37,075 bases of DNA from Butyriboletus loyo. Lineage: Eukaryota; Basidiomycota; Agaricomycetes; Boletales; Boletaceae. The notes beneath the pieces were generated by a model. The model was not told where the DNA came from. It ran no database searches and was given only the letters and a program-made list of their open reading frames with translations. The stretch lies in contig JBBPSI010000233.1 of NCBI GenBank assembly GCA_038093515.1, positions 1-37,075 of the forward strand, in the 5' to 3' direction. The position numbers were made by a program, and so were the translations under genes. Positions 27,335 through 37,075 of this stretch are shown piece after piece (position 1 is the stretch's first letter; every line of letters begins with the position of its first letter).

Positions 27335-29738
27335 ATGGCAGCGACGACCGACCAGCAAATGTCGCTTACCGTAGCCCCGAGAGGGTTAAACACCTCCCAT
27401 TTGAACAGACCAGCCAGACAACTTGTCCCAGCCTTTCTCCAGAAACTATACGAGTGAGTGTCCTCATCTAATCTTTGCCCAGAAGGCCATCATTTGTTCA
27501 TCTTCTCGTCGCTTGGTGCTTGATAGGATGGTCAACGACCCCGCAGACCAAGATCTCATAAGATGGTCTGATGCTGGTGACTCCTTCTTTGGTGAACATC
27601 TCCCCTAAACTACGCGCCCAACTCGTGTCTGACTTCCTATTTCCCCACTTTTTACTTTCCAATGCAGTCCTCGACCAAGAGCGATTCGCAAGTGAAGTCC
27701 TCGGACGTTGGTTCAAGCACAAGAACTTTAGCTCCTTTGTCCGCCAACTCAACATGTACGGCTTTCACAAGATCCCACATCTCCAACAAGGTGTCCTCCG
27801 TGCCGACTCGGATACCGAATTCTGGAACTTTGAACACCCACACTTTTTGCGTGGCCAACCGGACTTGTTGTGTCTCATACAGCGGAAAAGGCAAGCACCA
27901 ACAATGGGCGACGATGCACATGCCATCCCCGCTGCAGGGAAGGACGCGGCGGGTAATGCGGCGGTGGGAACGTTGTCTGCGAATCAGCTGTTGGACATCA
28001 ACTCGATTGTGAATGGGATACAGGCGATCAAGCGGCATCAAGCAGCCATCTCTGCTGACTTGAACGAGTTGAAGAGTTCAAATCAACATCTCTGGCAGGA
28101 GGCGATGACGGCGAGAGAGAGGCATAAGAAACATCAGGATACCATCAATCGCATTCTGAAATTTTTGGCGGGGGTGTTTGGGCATGGTGAGAACCAGATG
28201 AGAAAGGACGAGGATGCGTCGCATGCTGTAGTGGCTAGGAAGCCCCAGAGACTGATGATCGCGGATTCTCGGAATGGACAGAAGGTGGACACGAATGAGG
28301 TTCCGGAAGAGGATTCTAGGTCGAGCATGGAAAGTGCGCAGTCGGCGAATTCGACAAGTGCGTCTTCTCGGCAGATCTCGGTTCTTTGTCGCATTGATCC
28401 CGAACTCCAGATTACTTTGGGTCGTTGGATACACCTTCTTTACAGCCTTCAGAACCGTTTTCGACCCCTAGGTTTGCTTCCGTTGAACCGAGCGCCGCAG
28501 ATGCCCCTACGCCATGCGCTATAGATCCTCGTCTCGCTCCACAAGAGACCAGACCCGCGCCGATCGTACCACCGCTGGATACAATTAACCCGACTTCGTA
28601 CACCAACCCTACGACTACCACTGCTACACCCCCACAAGCGAACAACGACCATATTGTACAGACGGCATTGACCTCTGTTCTCAACTCACCGTCACAAATG
28701 CAAAAACTGCTTGCGGCACTTGCGGTTCAGTCTATCTCGCCCGATGTATTACCACCAGCGGGTCAAGCACATCTTCAACATCTCATTGCGCCATCACCAT
28801 ATAACAATGCCTTTCAACAGTCCACTCCCGACATCAGTCCAAACTCAGGAAATATGCATCCCAATGTCACCACCCCAACACGATTACCCGCGACATTTGA
28901 TTATACGTCAGCTAATGCATTGTCACCGTTCACGCTCTCACTTCTCGGGGCACCTGCAGATCCAGATCCAGATCCATTCGCACTCCAACAGCAAGATGAT
29001 CGGCTTCAAAAGACTTACAAGTCTACCACGGAGATCAACGACGACGTGGATGAGCTGCAGGACAACATCCAGTCACTCATCCAGAGTCTGGGTATCGATC
29101 CCACGACGCTGGATTCGGTTGTCCCTCTCGTGGAAACCGCCACAGGCGTTGGCGGTGGGGGAAGGACATCTGTGCCACTGCCAGCGGGGGATGTGGACAT
29201 GTTCTCGTCCGCTAATATCGGTACCGGCCAGGACTTTGACTTTGACTCGTTTCTGATGGACATGCCGCGTACGAACGAGGAGGACGGCGACCTTGACAAG
29301 CTGGCGGAGAAACTGGACCCGTCGACCGTCGTTGTGCCCAAGGTATCGGATTCGTCCAAGATCGGGAACGCGTCGTCGAAACAATTACATGCCTTTTTGA
29401 ACGAGGTAGCGTTGCAAGATGGGAACGAGGGTGTCGGGGGTGGCAATGTCCGTGTCCGTGTTGGTGTCCGTACGGGTGTGCCACAGCTACATGGGTCGCA
29501 AGCATTCAAGGTGCCTGCCGGTGCTGCGAGCGGTGGGTCTGGTGCTGTTTCTGGTGCGGGCGTGGGGGTAGGGCCTGGGCCAGGGGCAACGACACGCGGA
29601 CGGAAGCGCAAGTCGGATGTGATCGTGGACGACGCACTTACCTTTGGACCGCAGGAAGTGCCAGGGGCGATGGCGACGACGACGGCGACCTCTGCGGCGA
29701 CTTCGATAACGGGCAACAGGAGCAAGCGCAAGAGATAG
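27335..29738 (+). CDS. HSF1: Heat shock transcription factor (Hsf1 type)
   Basis: A nuclear transcription factor that binds heat shock elements as a trimer. Four exons (27335-27453, 27527-27591, 27668-28357, 28411-29738) give 733 residues. The DNA-binding domain covers about residues 31-136: VPAFLQKLYEMVNDP, IRWSDAGDSFFVLDQERFAS, recognition helix FSSFVRQLNMYGFHKI and EFWNFEHPHFLRG. A heptad-rich trimerisation region follows at about 165-232, ending HQDTINRILKFLAGVFG. The long C-terminal half is Pro/Ser/Thr-rich with acidic, aromatic patches suited to activation (DVDMFSSANIG and DFDFDSFLMDMP). Basic clusters GRKRKSD and RSKRKR near the end may be nuclear localisation signals. The coiled coil and length fit Hsf1 better than Skn7 (no receiver domain) or Sfl1. 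Confidence 0.93.
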
Positions 29739-35684: not shown

Positions 35685-37056
35685 TCATAACATTTTAGCT
35701 ATGCATTGGCCTATGCTATAAGACAAGTTAGTATGTAGAAAGTTGTGTCACTTCACTACCTACACAAAGGGTGCTGCTTTATGATGTCCATGACAAGGTC
35801 CACTTTCTCATCTTTAGATTTGGTGGCAAAATGTTTGGATAAGATCTCATCCAGTTTCTTTGATATCTGAGCAGATACCCCAGATGCTTCATACCTTTTT
35901 TCTGCTAAGGCAAAGGGATTTTCAGATTTATTTTGGACCAGAGTGAAGGAATATTGAAGAAGTAGTATAAGGCCTATGAAAAGATATCAAGGTTATGAAA
36001 ATTCAAAATGAATTAACTGACCAATGCCACGTTGCAGAACCATTCTCTCAGTGTTGGTTCTCTTTTTGATCTGAAATACATAAAGAGTTAATACAGTAAA
36101 TATATTTTCATGATTGTACATGCCACCATGGTGTTTGCCTCTGTTGGTTGAAGAGAACTCTGAAATGAATGAAATTGTTGTAGCAAATACCTAGTATAAT
36201 CAAATGATAAATGATTTACCAGGGAGGACTGAGGGTTGGTGACAATCTGCATGATGTCAGTTGCAATATAAAGACCTTCAAGTTAAAAACTGACACTCTG
36301 GTCAAATTATGAGTACAATATTTAAACAATCACATAGATGTCTTACCTTCTAAATGTAGACAAAGCATAAAATTAAATAACACAAATAAGATTGCATGGG
36401 TAAACTTACATCCTATAGGAATGATAATCAATTCATAGCTGCATAACTATTACAGTAGCAAGATAACACTTACCAGCTAAGTATACCAGAAGTTGTGAAA
36501 TAATAGGGTTATATCAACATTTCAAGATAAATAGAGGTTTCATGAGCAGAATGCAGATTTCAATTGTGAATAAGATCACTTACATTCTATTTAGAAAAAA
36601 AAAACATGAAATGCAGGGATGCATATATTAGTAATACACATTGGAACAACATATCATGTAATTTACCCTCTGGAAGGGAGAGTAAAGTGGGCAGATAAAT
36701 CATTCATTCTCCAATGTCAGGTCAGATCACTCACTGCCTGTCAATGAGAAAGAATGAACATGAATTAATCAGCAATGAACATTTTCACATGCATACAAAG
36801 ATGCTCACAAACTAGTATCCAAATAGCCATAGAAGCAGACAGGTCAACCATCAGAGAGATCAGCAACAGCATCTGTCCTGGAGTTCATATGAGACCACAT
36901 ACATCCTGTGAAAGAAAGAGCAGCAGGGAGGATACTTGTTAGTATAATTTTCATTTTAAACCCACATCAGACCACTTACTTGCTATTAGTGGAAGAGCAC
37001 AAGGAAAGTTCATTAACATCATTCTTCTTTCAAATCAGTATTAGATCACTTACTTG
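35685..37056 (-). CDS. Uncharacterised intron-dense gene with single-codon exons (5' end outside window)
   Basis: Reading right to left, the first ten exons are three bases each (see the array entry) and spell QQDFARNLDK. Normal exons follow: 36246-36220 (IVTNPQSSL), 36159-36127 (SSLQPTEANTM), 36070-36022 (IKKRTNTERMVLQRGIG) and 35974 onward (LILLLQYSFTLVQN, FALAEKRYEASGVSAQ, KKLDEILSKHFATKSKDEK and VDLVMDIIKQHPLC). The last exon either stops at 35758-35756 or, by a 44-base intron (35759-35716) with a TACTAAC branch point, continues SIGQCIAKML to a stop at 35687-35685. An extra AGT exon at 36297-36295 is possible between AAG and ATT, splitting the 100-base intron in two. The deduced protein is mostly helical and charged; no family or signal peptide is recognised. 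The whole gene sits in CpG-free DNA. Confidence 0.6.
36347..37056 (-). other. Array of ten consecutive 3-base exons
   Basis: Exons in transcript order: CAA 37056-37054, CAA 36982-36980, GAT 36905-36903, TTT 36811-36809, GCA 36737-36735, AGG 36669-36667, AAT 36586-36584, CTG 36476-36474, GAT 36412-36410, AAG 36349-36347. Each is preceded by a clean acceptor (such as CTAATAG, TTCACAG, CTTCCAG, ACATTTAG) and followed by a strong donor (GTAAGT, GTATGT, GTGAGC, GTGAGT, GTAAAT, GTAAGA). The introns between them are 71, 74, 91, 71, 65, 80, 107, 61 and 60 bases; the next one is 100 bases. Reading through any of the ten meets an in-frame stop. Branch-like motifs occur, for example ACTAAC near 36938-36943. 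The first acceptor at 37058-37057 implies the array continues outside the window. Confidence 0.65.
36573..37053 (-). repeat. Related intron 5' ends (GTRAGTGRTCT)
   Basis: The introns that begin at 37053 (GTAAGTGATCT), 36979 (GTAAGTGGTCT), 36734 (GTGAGTGATCT) and 36583 (GTAAGTGATCT) share an 11-base start; the one at 36902 (GTATGTGGTCT) is close. A donor consensus normally explains only the first six bases. The intron bodies look diverged. This resembles introner-like elements, though copy number elsewhere is unknown. Confidence 0.6.
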
Positions 37057-37075
37057 CTATCAAAGGAAATGAGCA

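What the first reader, a model, noticed from the sequence alone, without database searches (positions are those of the whole stretch)
36347..37056. Ten consecutive exons of exactly one codon each
On the minus strand ten GT...AG introns follow one another with only three bases between them, always in phase 0. All donors and acceptors are good, every intron has an in-frame stop, and the ten codons lead in frame into ordinary exons of a plausible protein. Isolated 3-base exons are known in eukaryotes, and genes made mostly of micro-exons are known in schistosomes and gall aphids, but a run of single-codon exons in a fungus is, to my knowledge, not described. It raises the question of how the spliceosome defines exons this short.
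Basis: partly seen in the sequence, partly recalled or inferred. Interest (0 to 1): 0.95.

Follow-up and report, generated by a model that had tools for sequence, protein, structure and literature searches.

The report
Fungal gene with single-codon exon array
In this mushroom genome a family of GTPase-like genes appears to encode part of each protein one amino acid at a time, with an intron after every single codon, which would be an unknown gene layout and a possible way to make a protein stretch evolve very fast.

Summary
The window is a whole contig ending inside the array. Sister copies in the same genome show the full gene: seven GTPase exons, then 41-58 consecutive AG|NNN|GT units (about 75 bp each; four copies complete on one contig), then four ordinary exons, in phase 0. 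Evidence that the triplets are exons is comparative; there is no RNA. In the conserved ends of the array, splice columns vary in 1 of 92 against 821 of 1576 intron columns (the one change is GT to GC), and gaps touch 0 of 75 triplet columns against 242 of 1576. F, N, L and D of the run are invariant in 12 of 12 tail rows. Three of seven homologous proteins carry a similar motif at this place as ordinary coding sequence. Among close copies every triplet difference in the conserved ends changes the amino acid, while the GTPase domain has dN/dS 0.23. In the middle, eleven units with letter-identical introns hold six different codons. Against: five units have 1, 2 or 5 bases, and three of eight copies lack one ordinary acceptor. 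Best reading: a repeat domain whose constant part is an intron and whose variable part is one codon.

The parts
37054..37056 (-). single-codon exon t1 CAA (Q)
   Evidence: AG|CAA|GTAAGT; 3 nt in 12 of 12 tail rows
36980..36982 (-). single-codon exon t2 CAA (Q), variable between copies (E, G, N, R)
36903..36905 (-). single-codon exon t3 GAT (D), variable (K, H, A)
36809..36811 (-). single-codon exon t4 TTT (F), invariant in 12 of 12 tail rows
36735..36737 (-). single-codon exon t5 GCA (A), variable (E, T)
36667..36669 (-). single-codon exon t6 AGG (R), variable (K, E); weak donor GTAAAT
36584..36586 (-). single-codon exon t7 AAT (N), invariant in 12 of 12 tail rows; copy C8 has a GC donor here
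36474..36476 (-). single-codon exon t8 CTG (L); only change in 12 rows is synonymous TTG (C6)
36410..36412 (-). single-codon exon t9 GAT (D), invariant in 12 of 12 tail rows
36347..36349 (-). single-codon exon t10 AAG (K), variable (R, E, M)
36295..36297 (-). probable eleventh single-codon exon AGT (S), donor GTCAGT
   Evidence: AG-3 nt-GTCAG in 11 of 11 rows that reach it; P0053 and P0019 have T where it would be
36220..36246 (-). first ordinary exon after the array, IVTNPQSSL (27 nt)
36127..36159 (-). ordinary exon SSLQPTEANTM (33 nt)
36022..36070 (-). ordinary exon, 49 nt, donor GTCAGT
35756..35973 (-). last exon with the C-terminal region and stop (...HPLCR*)
   Evidence: in the AlphaFold model of homologue P0053 the matching part is helices 366-441
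37057..37075 (-). end of the intron before t1, cut by the contig end; the GTPase exons and most of the array are not on this contig
   Evidence: contig length 37075; complete copy C159b in L010

Best explanation
The window holds the 3' end of one member of a multicopy GTPase gene family. Between the GTPase domain and a C-terminal helical region, the coding sequence is a tandem array of intron-plus-one-codon cassettes (about 72-nt intron, 3-nt exon, phase 0), 41-58 of them in the four copies that are complete on one contig. Shown: the array, conserved splice sites, exact 3-nt exon length in its two conserved ends, and codon evolution unlike that of the introns. Inferred: the introns are removed one after another by intron definition, most simply 5' to 3', because an acceptor and the next donor 3 nt apart can hardly be bound at once. 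Each step would add one codon and put the next donor against the growing exon, as in recursive (ratchet) splicing. Inferred: exchange within the homogenised introns adds, removes and shuffles single residues in frame, and selection for amino-acid change diversifies the codons, giving a hypervariable linker between conserved flanks (RGLGxxKFLIQDDF ... AQEDFARNLDxS). A frame-breaking unit is presumably skipped.
For: Array and full gene. Chance excluded: (301 places with exactly 3 nt between [CT]AG and GTAAGTG, at most 6 for any other length from 0 to 15). Splice columns 1 of 92 variable against 821 of 1576 intron columns, gap columns 0 of 75 in triplets against 242 of 1576, in 8 head and 11 tail copies. 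The only donor change is GT to GC. F, N, L, D invariant in 12 of 12 tail rows. Close copies (7 head, 8 tail): 0 synonymous triplet differences (pN 0.063 and 0.105, pS 0), while GTPase residues 104-371 have dN/dS 0.23 in six close copies. Array middle: positions 1 and 2 have the highest entropy of 75 columns, 1.78 and 1.93 bits against a maximum of 1.50 in the intron; eleven units of three copies with letter-identical introns on both sides hold six different codons, all ending in T. 0 stops in 323 triplets of seven close copies (6.8 expected from composition) and 0 in 63 of two distant ones (4.3 expected). In alignment A2 the microexon residues DFAR and NLDRSVVTN stand over DFMN and MIDNTVVYN of P0053 and over DFKN and MADSTIIEN of P0019; P0007 has EFANLDRAVI nearby. 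Lanmaoa asiatica models J3R83DRAFT_2567 (GTPase) and _2566 (C-terminus), with consecutive tags and contigs of the same length, look like one gene split at this place.
Against: No RNA was examined. Five units break the rule: C159a and C111 have 1 nt, C149 and C8 have 2 nt, C254 has 5 nt. In the array middle such errors are not clearly rarer, per base, than intron length changes (by eye), so the middle may be skipped or tolerated. Three of eight copies read (C337, C111, C6) lack the AG of the modelled acceptor before the last GTPase exon, so those copies may be defective. Four head units (h1, h4, h7, h10) have AAG acceptors in the seven close copies. C8 has about 8 kb inserted in one array intron. 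Four of the seven homologues in A2 (P0106, P0098, P0120, P0088) do not show the motif clearly. A search with array plus C-terminus of one copy found no homologue at E 10. Codon saturation beside identical introns is more extreme than ordinary selection usually gives, so a mutational cause is possible.
Confidence: 0.75

Rival explanations
1. Only the conserved ends (head RGLGxxKFLIQDDF and tail AQEDFARNLDxS, about 25 codons) are true single-codon exons. The homogeneous middle is a 75-bp minisatellite that carries splice-like units along, is largely skipped, and has a dinucleotide that is hypervariable for mutational reasons.
For: The five wrong-length units all lie in the middle of arrays, none in the aligned ends. 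Codons there are only weakly tied to their introns: same codon in 0.109 of the 55 pairs with both introns identical (all pairs among 11 units) and 0.170 of 212 pairs with at most two differences, baseline 0.112. 153 of 160 middle codons end in T.
Against: The saturated positions are exactly codon positions 1 and 2, and amino-acid-changing evolution also marks the conserved ends. AG-3 nt-GTAAGTG outnumbers every other spacing by 301 to at most 6 in the family loci, although tandem copying alone would keep much of that.
Confidence: 0.25
2. The whole array is one 3-5 kb intron made of a minisatellite. The GT and AG are decoys or coincidence and no triplet is translated.
For: The middle of the array is a 75-bp tandem repeat. 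Gene models in relatives stop at the place where it would start or begin after it.
Against: In the aligned ends splice sites and 3-nt spacing are kept while about half of the intron columns vary; F, N, L, D are invariant; three homologues hold a similar motif; no stop triplets.
Confidence: 0.08
3. The copies are decaying pseudogenes or parts of a mobile element, so the structure is a relic.
For: Twelve loci with tail sequence (11, and C274), several truncated or broken: C411 has no head or GTPase part on its contig, C46b, C164 and C337 show only part of an array, C8 is interrupted. C337, C111 and C6 lack one acceptor AG.
Against: The GTPase part translates without a stop in 7 of 8 copies projected (C75 was shifted by the projection) and has dN/dS 0.23 among six close copies. 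C159b and C46 show neither a wrong-length unit nor the lost acceptor. Terminal repeats or a transposase were not looked for.
Confidence: 0.08

Closest known systems
Schistosome micro-exon genes (MEGs) and aphid bicycle genes
   Same: Many very short exons, symmetric in MEGs, between ordinary flanking exons, so exons can be skipped or added in frame.
   Different: Their exons are longer and of differing length, the introns are not a homogenised tandem repeat, and the products are secreted (all recalled; PMC9168663 and PMC4015677 seen as search listings only). Here each exon is one codon and the gene carries a GTPase domain.
Isolated 3-nt and 1-nt microexons (two 3-nt exons in lipS of Dactylellina haptotyla; 1-nt exons of plant APC11 and VPS55)
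   Same: Exons this short are reported, in a fungus and with RNA support in plants.
   Different: One or two per gene, not in long runs (passages of PMC5639578 and PMC8831610).
Recursive (ratchet) splicing with zero-nt exons in Drosophila
   Same: An acceptor abutting a new donor, so that each splicing step recreates a 5' splice site.
   Different: Nothing is retained and it subdivides long introns (recalled; passages and reference titles of PMC5126111). Here 3 nt are kept at each step.
Podospora HNWD (het-d/het-e) WD-repeat genes
   Same: Fungal gene family in which repeats are exchanged within and between loci while a few codons per repeat are under diversifying selection (abstract of PMC1805685).
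   Different: There the repeat is translated and four of its residues vary. Here all but one codon of each repeat is intron.
Boletales GTP-binding / G domain-containing proteins (MMR_HSR1-like)
   Same: Same GTPase domain, WFPH motif and C-terminal helices.
   Different: The seven full-length homologues aligned here have the linker as ordinary continuous protein; their gene structures were not seen.

Membership tests
MMR_HSR1-type GTPase (PF01926) | match above the curated cut-off and a P-loop | tested here: met
   C159b copy, 24.9 bits against 21.9, GRANAGKTT. The window itself lacks this part because its contig ends.
Micro-exon gene (MEG-like) | run of short exons, each a multiple of 3, between ordinary exons | tested here: met
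   41-58 units of 3 nt in four copies complete on one contig, two of which also hold one wrong-length unit; as exons inferred, not seen in RNA
Micro-exon gene (MEG-like) | exons of varied length up to about 36 nt (recalled) | tested here: not met
   units are 3 nt
Micro-exon gene (MEG-like) | secreted product with signal peptide (recalled) | not tested
   no signal-peptide program was run; the conceptual protein begins MKALKQRIRRLQ and carries a GTPase domain
Micro-exon gene (MEG-like) | transcripts with alternative inclusion of microexons | not testable with these tools
   no RNA data
Recursive splicing with zero-nt exon | AG|GT with nothing kept between | tested here: not met
   array units keep 3 nt; one conserved TAG|GTAATT before the array fits, in 9 of 9 copies, its use unknown
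Tandem-repeat domain under concerted evolution and diversifying selection (HNWD-like) | repeats homogenised while particular codons diversify | tested here: met
Tandem-repeat domain under concerted evolution and diversifying selection (HNWD-like) | NLR architecture with WD repeats | tested here: not met
   Pfam at E 0.01-0.1 lists GTPase and other P-loop families, and weak GPAT_N and DASH_Dad2 matches, but no WD repeat

The most novel reading that the evidence does not exclude
The gene is a codon-resolution diversity generator: a tandem-repeat domain from which everything but one hypervariable codon per repeat is spliced out. Recombination falls almost always in introns, so it seldom breaks the protein, and it edits the peptide one residue at a time. 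Because all units share phase and nearly the same splice sites, splicing may also choose combinatorially among them, so one locus could yield many peptide variants, possibly for non-self recognition.
Probability: 0.35. Interest if true: 0.97.

Novelty: categorically new. Interest (0 to 1): 0.9.

Why it matters
It would be the extreme case of exon size: dozens of consecutive exons of one codon. That makes it directly testable whether the spliceosome can work by intron definition alone, in what order introns 3 nt apart are removed, and how faithfully near-identical splice sites are paired. It would also be a new way to evolve a protein segment, with the recombining repeat spliced out and only the selected residue kept. 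Gene finders seem to miss it: gene models of relatives stop or split at this place, so such genes may be hidden in other mushroom genomes.

Tried and rejected
Considered and set aside: chance; a DNA transposon as the whole explanation (several copies share DNA on both sides of the gene, but element ends were not mapped); an assembly artefact (copies on several contigs agree); an RNA or regulatory repeat (does not explain codon-position asymmetry or the invariant residues). A structure search with the homologue's model gave generic GTPase folds such as G-alpha, dynamin-like and IRG proteins (first 50 of 1276 matches seen). A sequence search of solved structures matched only P-loop stretches of other GTPases. 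A homologue search with array plus C-terminus of one copy found nothing at E 10; the same database with a four-copy tail alignment gave 12 proteins.

Mended or dropped: alignment A1 has a wrongly placed C149 row and was not used for counts; the tail was realigned. In one search, 3 of 42 head and 3 of 30 tail triplet columns carry gaps, from the loss of one whole unit in C159b and from the contig end of C111; the gap test set these to zero while its intron counts still held the same events, so repeats it without those two copies and is the one cited. The 70 pairs with no mismatch ignored one-base length differences; the letter-identical cases are the 55 pairs, which are all pairs among only 11 units, so they are not independent. 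In one search the C75 frame came out shifted by the alignment projection and was left out of dN/dS. C75 and C395 hold the same run of codons, but C75 does not show the tail, so whether they are one gene or two is not settled; C111 and C274 are probably one gene. Copy counts are therefore approximate. On checking, the lost acceptor in C337, C111 and C6 led me to lower the main confidence from 0.78 to 0.75 and raise the relic rival from 0.06 to 0.08.

Full report
What is in the window. On the minus strand, ten triplets between 37056 and 36347 each stand between AG and GT, in the order CAA CAA GAT TTT GCA AGG AAT CTG GAT AAG, and read in frame into four ordinary exons that end in ...HPLCR*. An eleventh triplet, AGT at 36295-36297, fits the same pattern. 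Introns of the run are 49-107 nt long and each has an in-frame stop (10 of 10). The best such chain is ten long, against at most four in 3000 simulations and at most two in the rest of the window.

The run is cut off. The window is the whole contig C233. A DNA search of the same 30.3-Mb genome with the last 1076 bases gave 42 matches, among them ten other places at 83% identity or more. I fetched 30 stretches by place (17, 3 and 10). Copy C159b (L010) is complete: seven exons give 371 residues of a GTPase (PF01926, 24.9 bits, cut-off 21.9), then 43 single-codon units, then the exons seen in the window. The four copies complete on one contig have 43 (C159b), 53 (C159a), 58 (C149) and 41 (C46) triplets. 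C8 has 46 around an insertion of about 8 kb, C111 has 51 up to its contig end, and C411 has 31 with no head or GTPase part found on its contig. The lists come from a splice-site scan plus motifs for the conserved units that the scan missed. In the middle of the arrays the unit is a 75-bp tandem repeat. A pattern for that unit, with up to two mismatches, matches 285 places in the genome and its reversed control 2.

Are the triplets exons? There is no RNA here, so the case is comparative. (1) Splice sites: I aligned the first 14 units (head) of nine copies and the last 11 (tail) of twelve rows. Dropping one copy from each that had lost a unit or ended early, 1 of 92 splice columns varies against 821 of 1576 intron columns (Fisher p 6e-27), and gaps touch 0 of 75 triplet columns against 242 of 1576 intron columns (p 7e-6). 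Columns are not independent, so the p-values are a guide. The single splice change is GT to GC, in C8, a donor that spliceosomes accept (recalled). (2) Length: between [CT]AG and GTAAGTG there are 301 places with exactly 3 nt and at most 6 for any other length from 0 to 15; the six at 7 nt are an ordinary exon end upstream. Tandem copying alone would keep part of this in the middle of the array, so the ends carry the weight. (3) Amino acids: t4 F, t7 N, t8 L and t9 D are invariant as residues in 12 of 12 tail rows, the one DNA change being CTG to TTG. (4) Homologues: P0053, P0019 and P0007 are proteins of 432-446 residues read without a break from contigs of 1.5-1.7 kb, hence probably from cDNA or from genes without introns. 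Alignment A2 sets the microexon residues DFAR over DFMN and DFKN, and NLDRSVVTN over MIDNTVVYN and MADSTIIEN, of P0053 and P0019; P0007 has EFANLDRAVI near the same place. Four of the seven homologues in A2 (P0106, P0098, P0120, P0088) do not show this clearly. The match is short, but it covers the eleventh triplet. (5) No stop triplet among 323 triplets of seven close copies (6.8 expected from composition) or 63 of two distant ones (4.3 expected); units are related by descent, so these are not independent either.

How the codons evolve. Among six close copies the GTPase part (residues 104-371) has dN/dS 0.23, ordinary constraint; over all 371 residues it is 0.42. In the close copies the head triplets (7 copies) have pN 0.063 and the tail triplets (8 copies) 0.105, with no synonymous difference at all. 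By my own count of those lists this is at least 16 separate changes, all amino-acid changing, where about 3 silent ones would be expected without selection (probability of none 0.03). In the array middle (160 units of seven copies) positions 1 and 2 are saturated and position 3 is T in 153. Eleven units of three copies (C159a, C149, C111) share letter-identical introns on both sides and still hold six different codons, TAT GCT CAT GAT CCT CTT. Same-codon frequency is 0.109 of the 55 pairs among these eleven, 0.145 and 0.163 of pairs with an identical downstream or upstream intron (241 and 245 pairs), 0.170 of 212 pairs with at most two differences, and 0.112 at baseline. The link between codon and intron is thus weak. 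Introns are homogenised while codons are not. Selection for amino-acid change fits, and so would a mutational process aimed at two bases; the invariant F, N, L, D argue that selection acts at least in the tail. In the scan the AG and GT were required by the search pattern, so only the entropy of the other columns counts there.

What speaks against. Five units have the wrong length: 1 nt in C159a and C111, 2 nt in C149 and C8, 5 nt in C254. Those of C159a, C149 and C111 explain the odd gaps in their arrays. Used as exons they would break the frame, so they must be skipped, or those copies are dying. None lies in the aligned conserved ends, which leaves open that only the ends are always used. 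Three of eight copies read (C337, C111, C6) lack the AG of the modelled acceptor before the last GTPase exon. C159b and C46 have neither fault. Four head units (h1, h4, h7, h10) have AAG acceptors in the seven close copies, two of them also in both distant copies.

How it probably works. The introns are short, with donors mostly GTAAGT and a pyrimidine tract; a branch-like YTRAY lies 8-60 nt before the end in 178 of 198 introns tested, but no control was run for that common motif. Each intron could thus be recognised by itself. With 3 nt between acceptor and next donor the two sites can hardly be occupied together, so stepwise removal is likely, each step laying down one codon and presenting the next donor. 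This is inference. It resembles ratchet splicing, and a conserved TAG|GTAATT with nothing between, just before the array in 9 of 9 copies, may be a real zero-length step or a unit that lost its codon. In C159b one whole unit has been lost cleanly at head units 4 and 5, which shows how a single codon can be removed in frame.

What the protein is. The 120 best of 1205 homologues of the GTPase part were listed; those with an organism name come from Butyriboletus, Imleria, Lanmaoa, Chiua, Boletus, Rhizopogon, Suillus, Pisolithus, Tylopilus and Leucogyrophana, best Butyriboletus roseoflavus at 67% identity. Butyriboletus and Leucogyrophana were looked up as Boletales; the order of the rest is recalled. 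The source is inferred to be a bolete. An AlphaFold model of homologue P0053 (25-row alignment, mean pLDDT 75.8) places the linker between a GTPase domain and four C-terminal helices; pLDDT is under 50 at 303-323 and 339-360, and a helix of modest confidence (329-343) begins at the DFMNL motif (residue 328). So the array probably encodes a flexible segment with a small conserved helix at its end. Its function is unknown; rapid change in a large nucleotide-binding family of fungi recalls the HNWD non-self recognition genes (abstract of PMC1805685), but this is analogy.

Other species. Lanmaoa asiatica has a GTPase model J3R83DRAFT_2567 and a C-terminal model J3R83DRAFT_2566 listed on contigs of the same length, as expected if a gene finder split the gene at an array. 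The Butyriboletus protein ends shortly after WFPHT. Neither genome could be read here, so an array there is a guess.

Literature. Nine searches of an open-access library about tiny exons and related terms listed no title or abstract start that reports consecutive single-codon exons; most listed papers were not opened. A tenth was for the HNWD comparison. The nearest fungal case seen is two 3-nt exons in lipS of Dactylellina haptotyla (passage of PMC5639578). Subscription papers and preprints were not searched.

Noticed in passing
L010:3358-3366 (before the array; also in C159a, C149, C46, C111, C337, C8, C6, C75): TAG|GTAATT with no base between acceptor and donor is conserved in 9 of 9 copies; a possible zero-length exon (recursive splice site) in a fungus.
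   Followed up: partly
L010:7638-8140 and L010:8140-9824: After the gene an insert begins TGTTACGCTGG and the same word recurs at about 8141; related pieces lie in C411 and beside the array part of C8. Looks like a mobile element, not identified.
   Followed up: no
L010:3600-3690: Copy C159b has lost exactly one intron-plus-codon unit (head units 4 and 5 fused), an in-frame single-codon deletion.
   Followed up: yes
C111 end and C274 start (L019, L020): C111 ends at the GAT of t9 and C274 starts just after the following donor, so the two contigs are probably one gene broken in assembly.
   Followed up: partly
L019, L024, L022 (acceptor before the last GTPase exon): C111 and C337 have CCAT and C6 has TCAA where the other five copies read have AG.
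   Followed up: partly
window 27571-28524 (+): ORF with what looks like a heat-shock-factor-type DNA-binding domain (label recalled, no search run).
   Followed up: no
window 35976-37075: The last 1.1 kb has 34% G+C against 51% for the window.
   Followed up: no
L012, L019, L011, L015, L017 (arrays): Five array units with 1, 2 or 5 nt in place of 3; in the four short ones the T before the donor stays.
   Followed up: partly
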